This document shows positions 1 through 6,084 of a DNA stretch of 6,101 nt, piece after piece. The translations under genes were made by a program, and so were the position numbers. The notes beneath the pieces were generated by a model. It searched no databases. It saw nothing but the letters and a program-made list of their open reading frames with translations, and was not told the origin of the DNA. This DNA comes from JBFMHD01 sp040752395 [NCBI: Candidatus Hydrogenedentota bacterium]. Lineage in GTDB: Bacteria; JBFMHD01. Each line of letters starts with the position of its first letter. Position 1 is the stretch's first letter. The stretch is taken from the NCBI GenBank assembly GCA_040752395.1, contig JBFMHD010000170.1, forward strand, positions 1 to 6,101. Direction: 5' to 3'.

Positions 1-127
1 GCCGGCTGGAGCCAAAAGCCAAAAGCCTGCTGAAAAGTCTTGAGTCTTGAGTCTCGAGTCCTGTTTTGACTCACGACTTGCGACTCACGACTCTTTTCAT
101 ATCATCTTTAGTTTTTCATCCTTTGTG
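1..127. repeat. Left copy of a dispersed inverted repeat
   Basis: Bases 1-13 (gccggctggagcc) are the exact reverse complement of 6072-6084. Bases 98-127 match the reverse complement of 6019-6048 at 29 of 30 positions, the only mismatch being at base 120. Between these blocks, 14-32 resembles the reverse complement of 6049-6071 (shared AAGCC/GAGCCTG-type heptads), while 33-97 is an extra hairpin array absent from the right copy. The two copies therefore look like one intergenic repeat family in opposite orientation, bracketing the whole gene cluster. No transposase is seen in the window, so a composite mobile element is not supported by the visible genes. Confidence 0.7.
33..97. repeat. Heptad tandem array folding into a long interrupted hairpin
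   Basis: The left arm has gagtcNN units at 42, 49 and 56, preceded by aaaagtctt at 33-41. The right arm has gactcNN-type units at 68, 75, 82 and 89, followed by tttt at 94-97. Each gagtc can pair with a gactc or gactt, giving 5-bp stems separated by 2x2 internal loops around the loop at 61-67, closed by aaaa/tttt. Period-7 arrays recall the short tandemly repeated repetitive (STRR) heptamers described in cyanobacteria, though the unit here differs. A bidirectional terminator role is possible because the arms end in an A-tract and a T-tract. Confidence 0.65.
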
Positions 128-228: not shown

Positions 229-357
229 TATTCCCATTTCTTCTCCACCTATAACTGAGAACCTGTGAAAAAATTAGACTTTTTTAGAAAACAGGGAGTG
301 ATAATAAAAGAGTTACCCGGTATTAATGATGATTATTTCACAGGTTCTGAGGGAATA
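229..357. other. Inverted-repeat structure, possible leader RNA or small MITE-like element
   Basis: Bases 255-270 (ctgagaacctgtgaaa) pair with 336-351 at 15 of 16 positions, enclosing a 65-base loop. An outer pair, tattccc at 229-235 and gggaata at 351-357, is continuous with the right arm but separated from the left arm by 19 bases. The element ends about 25 bases before the candidate promoter, so it may lie outside the transcript of the downstream operon. No clear target-site duplication is visible. A TPP riboswitch was considered because of CTGAGA next to ACCTG, but the rest of the conserved aptamer is missing. Bases 191-228 and 412-453 show nothing else recognisable. Confidence 0.5.
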
Positions 358-1410: not shown

Positions 1411-2697
1411 ATGAACAAAGATACTTTGATAAATTTATTAAGAAAGAAGGAGATAATAGGCACAGTAAAAAAAGTTGCCAGGACCGAGGGTATTGAGGTA
1501 CCAGAGCTTGCTGATTTGATACTAAACAGCAGAGTTGTTATACCATGTAATATTCTTAATAGAGACAGACTAAAAGTATGTGGTATCGGTGAAAAATTAA
1601 GAGTTAAAATAAATGCTAATATAGGTACATCTCCTGATTGCCATAATCTTGATGTAGAGATAGCTAAAGCCAGGACCGCTGTTAAGTACGGCAGTGATAC
1701 TTTAATGGATTTATCCATTGGAGGAGATGTATATAAAATATTAAAGGGGATAAGAGAAACGGTTGACATACCACTTGGCACAGTTCCGGTTTATACCGCA
1801 TCCGTAAAAGCAAAAGAGAAATATGGTGTTTCATCTAAAATTACTGAAGATGATTTATTTGAAAGTGTAGAAAGGCATTGTGAGATTGGCGTTGATTTCA
1901 TAACAGTTCATTGTGGAGTGACCCGGAAAGTATTAGAGATATTAAAAAATAAAAAGAGGATATTAAACATAGTGAGTCGGGGAGGCGCTTTACTTGCTAA
2001 TTTTATGTTGAAAAACGATTGCGAGAACCCATTCTACGAAAAATTTGATAGATTGCTTGATATTGCAGCTTGTTATGATGTTACGTTAAGTTTAGGTGAT
2101 GGTTTAAGACCCGGCTGTATTGAAGATGCGACTGATACGCCGCAGATCGAAGAGATGATAGTTTTATCACAACTCGCTAAAAGAGCAGCAACAAGAGGTG
2201 TTCAAGTAATGATTGAGGGACCAGGTCATATACCATTAAATGAGATTGAGACCAACATAAAAATACAGAAATCTTTATGTAATGGAGCACCATTTTATGT
2301 TCTTGGTCCGCTTGTAACAGACGTAGCTGTTGGCTATGATCACATTGCTTCAGCGATTGGCAGTGCTTTAGCGGGTTTAGCAGGTGCTGATTTTTTATGT
2401 TATGTGACACCTGCTGAACATCTCGGACTACCAACCATTGAAGATGTTAAAACAGGTGTTATAGCTTCTAAAATAGCTGCACATAGTGTTAACATCGCAC
2501 GTGGATTTAAAGATGCAAGAGAAAGAGATAGATTAATGGCTATCGCAAGACAGAAACTTGACTGGGAAAAACAATTTGAGCTCGCATTTGACCAGGAAAT
2601 CCCAAAAGAAAAAAGAAATAAAATTTTACCAGTAGATGAAGAATTATGCTCTATGTGCGGTGAATACTGTGCTATTTTGGCTTCTAAGAATTTATGA
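1411..2697 (+). CDS. thiC: ThiC-family radical SAM enzyme (HMP-P synthase, or possibly the BzaF paralogue)
   Basis: ThiC turns the purine intermediate aminoimidazole ribotide (AIR) into the thiamine pyrimidine HMP-P using S-adenosylmethionine and a [4Fe-4S] cluster in the cytosol. Conserved segments are INANIGTS (67-74), MDLSIGGDV (99-107), GTVPVY (123-128), TVHCGVT (165-171), SRGGALLA (189-196), SLGDGLRPG (227-235), VMIEGPGHIP (266-275), APFYVLGPL (293-301), GYDHI (308-312) and CYVTPAEHLGLP (330-341). The C-terminal cluster motif is C413-x2-C416-x3-C420, one residue shorter than the CX2CX4C of proteobacterial ThiC. At 428 residues it is the short form lacking the extra N-terminal domain of the E. 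coli protein. The usual TD(I/V)APGYDHI reads TDVAVGYDHI. The closely related BzaF makes 5-hydroxybenzimidazole from the same substrate and cannot be excluded. No TPP riboswitch is seen upstream. The ribosome site (gaaag, 1401-1405) is weak, suggesting translational coupling to the preceding gene. Confidence 0.9.
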   Translation: MNKDTLINLLRKKEIIGTVKKVARTEGIEVPELADLILNSRVVIPCNILNRDRLKVCGIGEKLRVKINANIGTSPDCHNLDVEIAKARTAVKYGSDTLMDLSIGGDVYKILKGIRETVDIPLGTVPVYTASVKAKEKYGVSSKITEDDLFESVERHCEIGVDFITVHCGVTRKVLEILKNKKRILNIVSRGGALLANFMLKNDCENPFYEKFDRLLDIAACYDVTLSLGDGLRPGCIEDATDTPQIEEMIVLSQLAKRAATRGVQVMIEGPGHIPLNEIETNIKIQKSLCNGAPFYVLGPLVTDVAVGYDHIASAIGSALAGLAGADFLCYVTPAEHLGLPTIEDVKTGVIASKIAAHSVNIARGFKDARERDRLMAIARQKLDWEKQFELAFDQEIPKEKRNKILPVDEELCSMCGEYCAILASKNL

Positions 2698-3644
2698 ATC
2701 GGCTCCCAAATTATTTAAGACTATCTATAACTGATAGATGCAATTTAAGATGCAAATATTGTATCGGGACCTTTGTCTATTTAAAAAGAGAAGAAATTCT
2801 TACTCTTGAAGAACTTTATAGAACCTCTTATCTTTTTTCAAGATGCGGGATTGATAAATTAAGAATAACTGGCGGTGAACCGCTTGTAAGAAAAGGTGCT
2901 ACAGAATTAATTAATAAAATTACTGAGTCTGAGCTATTTAATGACATATCTCTAACCACTAACGGAATGTTATTAGAAGAAAAGGCTGATGAATTGTTTA
3001 AAGCCGGTATAAGAAGACTTAATATCAGTCTCGCTACACTTGATAATGAAGAGTATTACGGATTAACAGGCGGAGATTTGAACAAGGTTTTAAGAGGGAT
3101 AAATTTAGCAAAAACCACTGGCTTTGAATCGATCAAGATAAATGTTGTATTATGGAAAGGACTACAAGAGAACGAGATCAACAATTGGATAGAATTTTCA
3201 CAAAAGAATAATTTAACAGTACGATTTATCGAACAGATGCCGATTGAATCAGGGATGTTTATTCAGGAACAATGGCCACGAACTACGGCAGGGAATGTTT
3301 TAGAGATAATAAGAAATAAATATATAATTGAAAAGATAGATATTAAAGGTGCAGGACCCGCTTCTTATTATAAATTGAGAGAAAAAAAAGTAGTGTTTGG
3401 TATTATCAATTCTATGGACCATAATCAATGTCTTACCTGCAACAGGATAAGAGTCTCAGCAAAAGGTGAATTAAGGTATTGCCTTTTTCAGGATGATTGC
3501 GTAGATTTGAAATACATTTTACGGAATGAAAAAGATGATGAAAAATTAATTGAGATGTTGAAAAAAATAGTTTCTAATAAGGTGTCGTACAAAAATAATA
3601 ATCCTCGAATATTATCACAACCTATGTCCTATATAGGAGGATAG
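2694..3644 (+). CDS. moaA: GTP 3',8-cyclase MoaA
   Basis: MoaA is a radical SAM enzyme that rearranges GTP to 3',8-cyclo-7,8-dihydro-GTP, the first step of molybdopterin synthesis. The N-terminal cluster motif is C16-x3-C20-x2-C23 in SITDRCNLRCKYC, and LRITGGEPLVRK (57-68) is the SAM-binding GGE region. The second cluster motif is C246-x2-C249-x13-C263 in NQCLTCNRIRVSAKGELRYC. Arginines R9, R251 and R253 align by motif with the GTP-contacting arginines of the family. The C-terminal double glycine (PMSYIGG, 315-316), needed for GTP radical initiation, is present. The loop after C23 lacks the usual Met-Pro and is shortened (CIGTFVYLKREEIL), and SLDTL reads SLATL. The start overlaps the thiC stop by 4 bases (ATGA). 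The last 96 bases are repeated before moaC, so this gene marks the left edge of an insertion. Its 316 residues are close to the family norm of about 330. Confidence 0.94.
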   Translation: MNRLPNYLRLSITDRCNLRCKYCIGTFVYLKREEILTLEELYRTSYLFSRCGIDKLRITGGEPLVRKGATELINKITESELFNDISLTTNGMLLEEKADELFKAGIRRLNISLATLDNEEYYGLTGGDLNKVLRGINLAKTTGFESIKINVVLWKGLQENEINNWIEFSQKNNLTVRFIEQMPIESGMFIQEQWPRTTAGNVLEIIRNKYIIEKIDIKGAGPASYYKLREKKVVFGIINSMDHNQCLTCNRIRVSAKGELRYCLFQDDCVDLKYILRNEKDDEKLIEMLKKIVSNKVSYKNNNPRILSQPMSYIGG

Positions 3645-3823
3645 ACGAAATTCTGTAAATCTCGAATTATAAATTGAAGATTGCAAATTGTAAATTTTAA
3701 AATGAAACAAGAGGCTTGGCACCTACTGATGAATTATAAATTGTAGATTGGAAACTCGGGAGTTAAAATCGGGGAATTGCCTTCGGCAACTTCGTGAATA
3801 CAAGACGATAAATAAAAGATTTT
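3645..3823. repeat. AT-rich heptad tracts between moaA and the MNT gene
   Basis: Immediately after the moaA stop, acgaaa (3645-3650) matches the atgaaa start of moaC. Period-7 AT-rich units follow: aattata, aattgaa, gattgca, aattgta, aatttta and aaatgaa at 3665-3706. A second tract has aattata, aattgta, gattgga and aactcgg at 3732-3759. The two tracts share gaattataaattg-type sequence as a direct repeat. A perfect small hairpin, ttgcc/ggcaa, sits at 3777-3789 with loop ttc and no flanking T-run. No convincing gene is seen here, and neither moaA nor the converging MNT gene has a clear terminator. Confidence 0.6.
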
Positions 3824-4153
3824 TTATATTAATGGAATGTCCTTACGACTTTTTAGGATTTCAGAGAGGATACTTGCTTTTTCTGGTTTCTGGTATTCAT
3901 CCCAAAAAATACACCGCGGTTCAATGTTATAATCTACCTTGGCCGCATAATGAAAAAGAGATGCTGTAATATTTATTCTATTACTTCCAGCCAGCTTATC
4001 AACTACTACTCCTACATCAATATCACTATCTTTTGATACTTTCCCTTTTGCATAGGATCCATATATAAACACTTTTTTTACAGAATAAATATCTTTAATC
4101 AATAAATAAAATTGCCTGACTTTTTCCTTAATTAAATCTTTCTTTTTAACCAT
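3824..4153 (-). CDS. Minimal nucleotidyltransferase (MNT) domain protein
   Basis: This is a small DNA polymerase beta-like nucleotidyltransferase. The signature FIYGSYAKGKVSKDSDIDVGVVV (29-51) contains the GS loop (32-33) and the metal-binding SDID (D44, D46). A later VDYNIEPRCIFWDEY segment (73-87) matches the IEP region typical of MNT proteins paired with HEPN proteins. At 109 residues it has the normal length of a stand-alone MNT protein. Its start lies inside the end of the HEPN gene, overlapping it by 22 bases in another frame, which indicates tight coupling. In characterised HepT/MntA toxin-antitoxin pairs the MNT partner AMPylates and silences the HEPN toxin. Applying that here is an inference, since the HEPN partner lacks the classical RNase motif. 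The gene runs against the mo-gene cluster and converges on moaA. Confidence 0.85.
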   Translation of the reverse strand: MVKKKDLIKEKVRQFYLLIKDIYSVKKVFIYGSYAKGKVSKDSDIDVGVVVDKLAGSNRINITASLFHYAAKVDYNIEPRCIFWDEYQKPEKASILSEILKSRKDIPLI

Positions 4154-4521
4154 TTAAACAAACTCCTGGTTTTTCTTAAAATCTCAAACGATCTTTTTTT
4201 TGTTAAACTTTTAAATAATTCTTTGATTGTTTCGGTATATCTTGATTCAAGGTAATAGGAATTCAGCAATTCAACAAATGTTAGCTCGCTTTCTTTAATC
4301 ATTGATGCAATTGATGTTAAGTTAATTAATTTTATTAAATTATGAGTATACGGTGGTGTTTTATTATTTTCTTTTACATAAATTGCTTTTAATATTTTCT
4401 CTATTGCCTGCTGGCAGGTGAATGCCACATAAAGGTATCTCCTGGATTTATACATATGTTTAGCAGTTTTTAAGTCATATTCTGCAATAATCATCCAATT
4501 TTTAACTATTTTTTCACTCAT
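4132..4521 (-). CDS. HEPN domain protein paired with the MNT gene
   Basis: This is an all-helical HEPN protein. Family hallmarks are NWMIIAEYDLKTAKHMY (8-24), FTCQQAIEKILKAIYV (34-49), PPYTHNLIKL (56-65) and SYYLESRYTE (88-97), the last corresponding to the Y-x-x-(A/S)-R-Y-(P/T)-(D/E) motif of PF05168-type HEPN proteins. The RX4-6H ribonuclease motif of HepT toxins is absent: no histidine follows R94 within six residues. RNA cleavage is therefore not supported, and a substrate-binding or regulatory role with the MNT enzyme is equally possible. The start is supported by agaggt (plus-strand 4527-4532) at good spacing. HEPN comes first and MNT second, with a 22-base overlap, which is a common order for these pairs. 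The pair lies on the opposite strand within an otherwise co-directional cluster, consistent with acquisition. Confidence 0.85.
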   Translation of the reverse strand: MSEKIVKNWMIIAEYDLKTAKHMYKSRRYLYVAFTCQQAIEKILKAIYVKENNKTPPYTHNLIKLINLTSIASMIKESELTFVELLNSYYLESRYTETIKELFKSLTKKRSFEILRKTRSLFKWLKRKI

Positions 4522-4579
4522 AAACTACCTCTAAATCTATAAATTTTCTGTTTTTCAATATCATGATACATTACCAATA

Positions 4580-4608
4580 AATTTACTATATTTTTGAAAA
4601 GCTATCAA
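4580..4608 (-). promoter_or_regulatory. Candidate promoter for the HEPN-MNT pair
   Basis: Read on the minus strand, TTGATA (plus-strand 4603-4608, 5 of 6 to TTGACA) is followed after 17 bases by TAAATT (4580-4585, 4 of 6 to TATAAT). The start of transcription would lie near 4573, giving a leader of about 50 bases. The -35 box overlaps an 8-bp perfect inverted repeat. Support is moderate because the region is AT-rich. Confidence 0.35.
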
Positions 4609-4622
4609 ATATTTTATTTGAT
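4604..4622. promoter_or_regulatory. Perfect inverted repeat, possible operator
   Basis: The arms atcaaata (4604-4611) and tatttgat (4615-4622) are perfectly complementary around ttt. The site covers most of the putative -35 box of the HEPN-MNT promoter, a position where a repressor would block transcription. A second palindrome, tatcatgata (4559-4568), lies just downstream in the leader. No regulator gene is present, so an operator role is inference. A weak hairpin is the alternative. Confidence 0.35.
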
Positions 4623-4650
4623 TTGCGTATACATGAAATGAAAAAAAATA

Positions 4651-4746
4651 GTTGAAATGTTGAAAAAAATAGTTTTTAATAAGGCGTCGTACAAAAATAA
4701 TAATCCTCGGATATTATCGCAACCTATGTCCTGGATAGGAGGATAG
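4651..4746 (+). pseudogene. Duplicated 3' fragment of moaA
   Basis: These 96 bases align without gaps to 3549-3644, the end of moaA, with 8 mismatches (about 92% identity). The match continues 6 bases into the moaC start. In the moaA frame the fragment encodes 31 residues plus stop, ending PMSWIGG, and differs from the intact copy by I/V, S/F, V/A and Y/W. The frame is closed upstream by a TGA at 4639-4641, so it is not a functional MoaA. Weak similarity may continue upstream through A-rich sequence to about 4635. It is best explained as the scar of an insertion or duplication at the moaA-moaC junction. Confidence 0.85.
4737..4742 (+). promoter_or_regulatory. moaC ribosome binding site within the moaA remnant
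   Basis: AGGAGG lies 4 bases before the moaC ATG and encodes the Gly-Gly codons of the moaA remnant. The same AGGAGG is present at the end of the intact moaA (3635-3640), where it now precedes ACG rather than ATG. The remnant therefore preserves the original overlap of the moaA end with the moaC translation signal. The 4-base spacing is short but the core is perfect. Confidence 0.7.
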
Positions 4747-5241
4747 ATGAAACTACCTACAAAGTTCAGTCACTTAACTAAATCTGGGGATGCTCGAATG
4801 GTCTCAATATCAAATAAAGAGAAAACGCATCGAATTGCTATCTCAAAAGCTGAAATAAAAATTAATAAAAAAACAATGAATTTAATACTTAAAAATGAGA
4901 TCCCCAAGGGCGATATCTTTAGTGTCTCTCGAAACGCAGGTATTATGGCAGTTAAGAAAACAGCAGAATATATTATTTTAGCACACCCTTTAAATATTAC
5001 AGCTATTAATATAGACTTTAATATAAATAAAAAAATGTCTATCATAGAGGTTGAGGTACGGGTTGAGGCTTTTGACAGGACTGGTGTTGAGATGGAATCG
5101 CTTGTTGGAGCAACAGCTGCTTGTTTAAATCTTTATGATATGATAAAATCTGTTGATAAATCCGCAAGAATAAATAATATTCGTCTTGTGTATAAAAAAG
5201 GTGGTAAAAGTGGCGAGTATATTAGACCGCCTCAACTTTAG
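4747..5241 (+). CDS. moaC: Cyclic pyranopterin monophosphate synthase MoaC
   Basis: MoaC converts the MoaA product to cyclic pyranopterin monophosphate in the cytosol. Matching segments are FSHLTKSGDARMVSIS (7-22), KGDIFSVSRNAGIMAVKKT (54-72), HPL (80-82), TGVEMESLVGATAACLNLYDMIKSVDK (112-138) and GGKSG (152-156). The residues expected in the active site are present: K54, H80, E115, E117, D131 and K134. The near-invariant Cys before the histidine (LCHP) is Ala here (LAHP), and MVDVS reads MVSIS. At 164 residues it has normal length. The start directly abuts the stop of the moaA remnant and uses its AGGAGG. Because the HEPN-MNT pair lies antisense upstream, transcription must either read through from moaA or begin at a promoter in about 4522-4650, where no strong plus-strand match was seen. 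Confidence 0.93.
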   Translation: MKLPTKFSHLTKSGDARMVSISNKEKTHRIAISKAEIKINKKTMNLILKNEIPKGDIFSVSRNAGIMAVKKTAEYIILAHPLNITAINIDFNINKKMSIIEVEVRVEAFDRTGVEMESLVGATAACLNLYDMIKSVDKSARINNIRLVYKKGGKSGEYIRPPQL

Positions 5242-6018: not shown

Positions 6019-6084
6019 CACAAAGTATGAAAAACTAAAGATGATATGTTGGCTTCAGGCTCCGGGCTTCGGGCTCCAGCCGGC
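6019..6084. repeat. Right copy of the dispersed inverted repeat
   Basis: Bases 6019-6048 are the reverse complement of 98-127 with one mismatch, and 6072-6084 is the exact reverse complement of 1-13. The intervening 6049-6071 reads in 7-base steps on the minus strand (ggagccc, gaagccc, ggagcct, gaagcca) and resembles 7-32. Unlike the left copy it lacks the gagtc/gactc hairpin array. The palindrome cagccggctg (6077-6086) ends the matched block. The remaining bases to 6101 show no clear feature. Confidence 0.7.

What the first reader, a model, noticed from the sequence alone, without database searches (positions are those of the whole stretch)
3549..4752. HEPN-MNT cassette split the moaA-moaC junction and left a duplicated moaA tail
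Bases 3549-3650 and 4651-4752 align without gaps at a constant offset of 1102 bases, with 9 mismatches in 102. The duplicated block is the last 96 bases of moaA plus the first 6 of moaC. The DNA between is foreign in orientation and content: a minus-strand HEPN-MNT pair and AT-rich heptad tracts. A duplication this long is not a transposon target-site duplication. It fits integration at a gene 3' end with restoration of that end, or recombination with a related moaA carried by the incoming DNA. The 8% divergence suggests either an old event or a donor from another strain.
Basis: partly seen in the sequence, partly recalled or inferred. Interest (0 to 1): 0.75.

Follow-up and report, generated by a model that had tools for sequence, protein, structure and literature searches.

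The report
Gene cassette bracketed by duplicated junction
A small toxin-antitoxin-like gene pair sits between two cofactor genes and is bracketed by two copies of the old gene junction, so both genes stay whole; similar scars recur around such pairs in other bacteria.

Summary
Observation confirmed. They copy the moaA end plus the moaC start. The 992-nt insert carries a minus-strand HEPN-MNT pair and no recombinase. MoaA's Gly-Gly codons (GGAGGA) double as a ribosome site for moaC, so the duplication keeps both genes usable; in copy 1 the moaC ATG is ACG. Five relatives keep moaA abutting moaC.

It is not a one-off. In two candidate phyla 14 of 88 HEPN-MNT cassettes (window excluded) have a tight bracketing repeat of 31-135 nt, against 6 of 420 random genes (Fisher 1.4e-7). 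Seven of the 88 copy a neighbouring gene's end by an automatic rule. PIN 3 of 30 and ParE 3 of 28 loci show a bracket; 0 of 10 E. coli K-12 loci do.

Best reading: insertion without its own recombinase, leaving a duplicated site, most likely anchored by homology to the neighbouring gene. Donor evidence is mixed; for the window itself duplication plus drift suffices. Toxin-antitoxin function is unproven, and the HEPN lacks RX4HXY.

The parts
2694..3644 (+). moaA (GTP 3',8-cyclase), complete, ends in Gly-Gly
   Evidence: TIGR02666 309.6 bits over a cut-off of 284.05
3541..3650 (+). repeat copy 1: moaA 3' end, stop and fossil moaC start
3636..3641 (+). GGAGGA in copy 1: MoaA Gly-Gly codons
   Evidence: sequence
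3645..3647 (+). ACG where copy 2 has the moaC ATG
   Evidence: alignment
3651..4642 (.). insert between the copies, 992 nt, no recombinase ORF
3653..3722 (.). AT-rich period-7 tract (also present at both window ends)
3824..4153 (-). MNT nucleotidyltransferase gene, GSX10DXD present
   Evidence: PF01909 2.1e-10; motif
4132..4521 (-). HEPN gene, overlapping MNT; no RX4HXY
   Evidence: PF05168 1.6e-22; motif
4634..4674 (+). 21-nt imperfect tandem at the left edge of copy 2
   Evidence: TRF; sequence
4643..4752 (+). repeat copy 2: displaced moaA 3' end plus the working moaC start
4738..4743 (+). GGAGGA in copy 2: likely moaC ribosome site
   Evidence: sequence; same overlap in five relatives
4747..5241 (+). 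moaC, complete
   Evidence: TIGR00581 160.3 bits over a cut-off of 141.5

Best explanation
A small HEPN-MNT cassette entered an existing moaA-moaC junction and the junction was duplicated, so the cassette is bracketed by two copies. Copy 1 supplies MoaA's C-terminus; copy 2 supplies moaC's likely ribosome site and start codon (shown by sequence and by uninterrupted relatives). The insert encodes no recombinase (shown for the window). Similar brackets recur around HEPN-MNT pairs in two candidate phyla (shown). Inferred: the DNA entered by additive integration anchored on homology to the neighbouring gene end, either a single crossover of a molecule carrying a copy of that end or homology-facilitated illegitimate recombination. 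Also inferred: the pair is addictive, so cells that lose it by recombination between the repeats are counter-selected and the scar persists.
For: Repeat and gene content. Uninterrupted moaA-moaC in five relatives. Tight brackets in 14 of 88 HEPN-MNT cassettes against 6 of 420 random genes, p 1.4e-7. Insert-free neighbours: DUF35-carboxylase in L301; ferredoxin directly before korA in 6 of 6 relatives examined (L279-L284). Donor-type signals: DUF35 copies differ at 8 synonymous and 2 non-synonymous sites (p 0.003 under one decaying copy) and the displaced copy ends VLV* like 3 of 5 relatives while the attached one ends VLK*; in lysC all 9 differences lie in the distal 32 of 89 nt and the nearest relative (83%) matches the displaced end almost letter for letter.
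Against: For the window, 5 of 8 differences are non-synonymous, as drift of one copy predicts (p 0.48); without L154 and L253 the pooled differences also fit drift (p 0.14). In lysC only 3 of 13 relatives share the displaced KFKL end and 7 of 13 have FGL like the attached end, and the gene beyond the displaced tail in L257 is not the cimA-like neighbour. Copy 1 holds 6 nt of moaC, so a linear donor would already have carried the insert there. 74 of 88 cassettes lack a tight bracket and 0 of 10 E. coli K-12 loci have one. Addiction is untested; the HEPN lacks RX4HXY, and a paper mentions precise loss of yafNO in an E. coli strain (PMC2884548, passage).
Confidence: 0.45

Rival explanations
1. 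Target duplication without donor homology: the cassette was captured at a widely staggered break, or by an unknown transposition or template switch; fill-in duplicated 30-135 nt of the site and the copies drifted apart.
For: Sufficient for the window. Fits recent cases with 2-3 differences (L185, L227). The 21-nt tandem at the right junction looks like a slippage or template-switch scar. The duplicated block spans moaA end and moaC start, as a random cut would.
Against: Pooled non-synonymous share 47% against 67% expected (p about 0.001), though two loci drive it; clustered differences in lysC.
Confidence: 0.33
2. The moaA-moaC junction was first tandemly duplicated and the cassette later inserted between the copies.
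For: Tandem gene-end duplications occur without any cassette (L363, L377).
Against: Needs two events; enrichment around HEPN-MNT pairs would need the cassette to prefer such duplications.
Confidence: 0.12
3. A site-specific integrative element that targeted a gene 3' end and restored it, and has since lost its integrase.
For: Gene end restored by an element-side copy, several 3' ends.
Against: No integrase or remnant in the insert; different genes and lengths at each locus, and 5' and non-coding sites too.
Confidence: 0.06
4. Assembly artefact or a mixture of two strains.
For: No whole genome and no reads were available.
Against: The longest exact word shared by the copies is 24 nt, shorter than usual assembly k-mers (recalled); the layout recurs in many separate assemblies.
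Confidence: 0.04

Closest known systems
MNT-HEPN modules of Makarova et al. 2009 (PMC2701414, passages read)
   Same: Two adjacent small genes, HEPN plus minimal nucleotidyltransferase, patchy and mobile; recent insertions noted (Thermus thermophilus HB8 against HB27)
   Different: The word 'repeats' has 0 occurrences in that text; no duplicated gene ends are described in the passages seen
Homology-facilitated illegitimate recombination (described in PMC2884548, passages; primary papers seen only in its reference list)
   Same: A homologous anchor on one side, an illegitimate join on the other, DNA added without a recombinase
   Different: Described there for segment replacement; duplication of 30-135 nt of gene ends around toxin-antitoxin-like pairs is not in the passages seen
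Variable segments flanked by direct repeats (PMC2884548, passages)
   Same: 10-18% of variable segments have flanking direct repeats
   Different: 66-94% of those repeats are under 30 bp; here 31-135 nt, several copied from gene ends
Integrative elements at gene 3' ends (recalled, no call)
   Same: Gene end restored; direct repeats at both ends
   Different: No integrase in the insert; many different target genes
Type VII toxin-antitoxin HepT/MntA (PMC11586414, passages)
   Same: HEPN plus MNT; GSX10DXD present in MNT
   Different: HEPN lacks RX4HXY; MNT below the NCBIfam MntA cut-off (33.9 against 60 bits)

Membership tests
Type VII toxin-antitoxin (HepT/MntA) | MNT with GSX10DXD | tested here: met
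   GSYAKGKVSKDSDID in the window MNT
Type VII toxin-antitoxin (HepT/MntA) | HEPN with RX4HXY | tested here: not met
   No match in the window HEPN; 0 of 98 HEPN ORFs of the set, which holds overlapping loci
Type VII toxin-antitoxin (HepT/MntA) | MntA family score over the curated cut-off | tested here: not met
   NF047752 33.9 bits against 60
Type VII toxin-antitoxin (HepT/MntA) | HEPN toxicity neutralised by AMPylation | not testable with these tools
   needs experiment
MNT-HEPN module (Makarova 2009 sense) | Adjacent small HEPN and MNT genes on one strand | tested here: met
   3824-4153 and 4132-4521, both minus; PF01909 and PF05168
Transposon insertion | Transposase in the insert | tested here: not met
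   ORFs of the insert and Pfam
Transposon insertion | Terminal inverted repeats of at least 18 nt at the insert ends | tested here: not met
   none pairs both insert ends in the listing; shorter ones not sought
Integrase-driven element at a gene 3' end | Integrase in the element | tested here: not met
Integrase-driven element at a gene 3' end | Target gene end restored by a repeat | tested here: met
   intact moaA and moaC
Homology-anchored additive integration | One copy derived from a donor homologue | tested here: inconclusive
   Suggested in DUF35 and lysC; not in the window

The most novel reading that the evidence does not exclude
HEPN-MNT and some other toxin-antitoxin-like pairs in certain candidate phyla are a class of mobile gene cassette without a recombinase of their own: they insert next to or across gene ends with long duplications of the site, the duplicated end keeps the host genes alive, and addiction stops the flanking repeats from excising the pair. 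Excision between the repeats would give a circle carrying the gene end, able to re-enter the same site in relatives.
Probability: 0.28. Interest if true: 0.8.

Novelty: new variant of a known kind. Interest (0 to 1): 0.58.

Why it matters
Toxin-antitoxin pairs are described as highly mobile, yet how bare two-gene pairs insert is not explained in the passages I read. A scar that preserves the old junction twice makes the question testable: which copy is native, how long the duplication is, which sites survive, and whether addiction is what keeps long direct repeats from looping the pair out. The moaA-moaC case also shows why a junction duplication could be selected: the last two MoaA codons are moaC's likely ribosome site, so a plain insertion there would damage one of the two genes.

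Tried and rejected
Own genome: none held, so other duplicated gene ends in it could not be sought. MoaA scans of genome contigs and viral contigs and a HEPN scan of viral contigs confirmed no relative. HEPN against plasmids: one 36.5% match, Bacteroides uniformis. The ThiC scan gave 80 loci, best 57%, and a tree with the window on a long branch. The host phylum stays open; MoaA was closest (46% full length; 57% over the first half, at a contig end) in the phylum of a Ca. Stahlbacteria record. No PDB sequence match for HEPN or MNT.

Controls and cases against: E. coli K-12, 0 of 10. Of 5 cassettes from the phylum of a KSB1 record, 1 had a loose bracket, 159 nt at 70% (L357). Relatives of L271's gene: none besides itself among 19 genomes. 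Heptad tracts as cause: rejected.

Filtering: L121 (a repeat that looks dispersed) and L189 (heptad-like) pass the tight filter and are among the 14; without them 12 of 88, p 2.8e-6. L124, L147, L155, L162 and L198 were loose brackets judged dispersed, internal or array repeats and are not in the tight count. The G165 cassette (L129/L186; 64-nt repeat) was not paired by my MNT model and is in no HEPN count; its HEPN was among the tight random ORFs (4 of 205) and was taken out. The third-copy check used the whole locus and 3 kb either side, which swapped one hit (L208 out, L216 in). Neither check sees the rest of the genome, so dispersed repeats may remain. 33 of the 40 control stretches come from genomes with a HEPN match. 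PIN used 30 loci and ParE 28 of 30, a part of the matches listed; ParE had a laxer distance limit, 500 nt. L225 fails the 400-nt limit; L172 and L256 are tight but not 'gene-end' by the rule. Some cassettes lie near contig ends, where a bracket cannot be seen. ORFs next to cassettes in the same loci: 4 of 88 loosely bracketed.

Papers: searches listed no report of long gene-end duplications around toxin-antitoxin pairs, and one search (heptads) found nothing; this is absence from these listings only. Passages were read in three papers; the rest were seen as listings.
Full report
What is there. The window runs nucleotidase-like gene, thiC, moaA, [insert], moaC, mog-like gene. The 992 nt between the copies hold a minus-strand HEPN (4132-4521) and MNT (3824-4153) and no recombinase ORF. 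The right junction carries a 21-nt partial tandem copy. Period-7 tracts occur in the insert but also at both window ends.

Why both genes survive. MoaA ends in Gly-Gly, and its codons GGAGGA are also a likely ribosome site for moaC, whose ATG follows the stop directly. Five relatives show the same overlap or abutment with no insert: L085, L101, L102, L103, L106 (five examined there, out of 16 distinct loci whose moaA ends were printed). In the window copy 1 gives MoaA its end and copy 2 gives moaC its ribosome site and start; the spare start in copy 1 is ACG. A plain insertion here would harm one gene; an insertion with junction duplication harms neither. That selection favoured this is inference.

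Is it a one-off? No. HEPN relatives were taken from 147 genomes of the phylum of a Ca. Stahlbacteria record (48 of 147 with a match) and 193 genomes of the phylum of a Ca. Omnitrophota record (20 of 193). 64 and 24 distinct cassettes or arrays could be defined (window excluded). Tight filter: repeat of at least 30 nt, E below 1e-4, both copies within 400 nt of the cassette, no third copy nearby. It was met by 9 of 64 and 5 of 24, against 3 of 204 and 3 of 216 random genes from the two phyla; together 14 of 88 against 6 of 420, Fisher p 1.4e-7. Without two doubtful cases, 12 of 88, p 2.8e-6. Loose filter: 25 of 88 against 21 of 420, p 1.5e-9. Random same-strand gene pairs: 0 of 56. Other toxin families of the first phylum: PIN 3 of 30, ParE 3 of 28 with a laxer distance; nominal p 0.029 and 0.025 against 3 of 204. 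E. coli K-12: 0 of 10. So the scar is enriched but belongs to a minority of cassettes, and it is not universal.

What is duplicated. By eye, the clearest repeats copy the neighbouring gene's end: the DUF35 3' tail in L154 (56 nt, 82%), the lysC-like 3' tail in L257 (89 nt, 90%), 3' tails in L253, L262, L271 and L172, and around PIN genes in L227 (82 nt, 96%) and L225 (91 nt, 92%); the korA-like 5' end in L185 (69 nt, 97%); and stretches that look non-coding in L174, L177, L180 and L129. By the automatic rule 7 of 88 were gene-end type (3 of 64 and 4 of 24), against 1 of 204 random genes once the G165 HEPN is set aside; the rule was not run on the second control. Surviving insertions are expected at gene ends whatever the mechanism, so a 3' bias is no proof of site choice. 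Of the six tight random hits, L363 and L377 look like remnants of tandem gene duplication and L373 is a gene that looks like a REP-associated transposase (names recalled).

Empty sites. In L301 (G160) DUF35 is followed after about 80 nt by the carboxylase-like gene that in G157 lies beyond the cassette and the displaced tail. In 6 of 6 relatives examined (L279-L284; a seventh, L285, was not) a ferredoxin gene directly precedes korA, whereas G153 has a further gene and the cassette between. The lysC-like gene is followed by a cimA-like gene in 10 of 13 relatives by eye; in G184 a Phd-RelE-like pair sits between the two without a repeat. In L257 itself the gene beyond the displaced tail is not cimA-like, so this site's old neighbour is unknown. 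Gene names here are recalled from motifs.

Which copy is native? Mixed. In lysC the displaced copy ends KFKLGK*, almost letter for letter like the nearest relative (83%, KFKLGR*), and the attached tail ends KFGLERGK*, nearer to G184 (KFGLGREK*); all 9 differences lie in the distal 32 of 89 nt. But among 13 relatives only 3 have KFKL and 7 have FGL, so this is a hint and no more. In DUF35 the displaced copy ends VLV*, as in 3 of 5 relatives, the attached one VLK*, while in the body the attached copy is by eye nearer to G160. A crossover between native and incoming tails would give that. Pooled over eleven coding stretches of ten loci, the non-synonymous to synonymous ratio is 0.26. Under one decaying copy I expected 67% non-synonymous and saw 47% (p about 0.001); without L154 and L253 the rest fits decay (p 0.14), and so does the window (5 of 8, p 0.48). 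The expectation assumes a ratio of 0.15 in the functional copy, my choice. L253's gene has another relative in its own genome (63%), so its second tail may come from a paralogue.

Mechanism. Shown: insertion into an existing junction, duplication, no recombinase in the window's insert, recurrence. Inferred: entry by homology-anchored additive integration, in which divergence between the copies can be there from the start; and persistence because loss is penalised. The strongest rival is break-and-fill-in with later drift, which suffices for the window. A linear donor must already have carried the insert at the moaC start, since copy 1 contains 6 nt of moaC; a circle excised from a relative with the same insertion, or plain duplication, avoids this difficulty.

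Membership. The MNT has GSX10DXD; the HEPN lacks RX4HXY, which the Legionella paper gives as conserved (PMC11586414, passages), and so do all 98 HEPN ORFs of my set, overlapping loci included. The MNT is below the NCBIfam MntA cut-off. I therefore call it an MNT-HEPN module in the sense of Makarova et al. 2009 (PMC2701414, passages), not a HepT/MntA system. PADLOC's best match is a candidate-defence model for the MNT (PDC-S09, 3e-12) and none for the HEPN. Toxicity and addiction are untested.

Novelty. MNT-HEPN mobility and homology-facilitated illegitimate recombination are known (PMC2701414 and PMC2884548, passages). Long gene-end duplications around such pairs did not turn up in searches. 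I rate it a new variant of a known kind.

Noticed in passing
L130, L152, L153, L163: Tandem arrays of several MNT-HEPN pairs, with diverged copies head to tail.
   Followed up: partly
L289 2004-2457: A Phd-like antitoxin and RelE-like toxin sit between lysC-like and cimA-like genes, overlapping or abutting both, without a direct repeat.
   Followed up: partly
window 98-127 / 6019-6048 and 1-29 / 6056-6084: Inverted repeats of 30 nt (97%) and 29 nt (83%) near both ends of the window, in stretches with period-7 tracts.
   Followed up: no
window 255-274 / 332-351: A 20-nt inverted repeat (90%) 57 nt apart upstream of the nucleotidase-like gene, possibly a hairpin.
   Followed up: no
L357 329-487 and 1557-1715: An MNT-HEPN pair lies between a broken 5' fragment and the start of an intact gene, 70% identical over 159 nt.
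   Followed up: partly
L373 14428-15326: A gene that looks like a REP-associated tyrosine transposase is bracketed by 56-nt direct repeats.
   Followed up: no
L257 1100-1188: The MNT gene's end runs out of frame into the displaced lysC tail, so the cassette lost its own 3' end at the junction.
   Followed up: no
HEPN set: 0 of 98 HEPN ORFs have RX4HXY; 79 have RYP and 42 have R, 4-6 residues, H.
   Followed up: no
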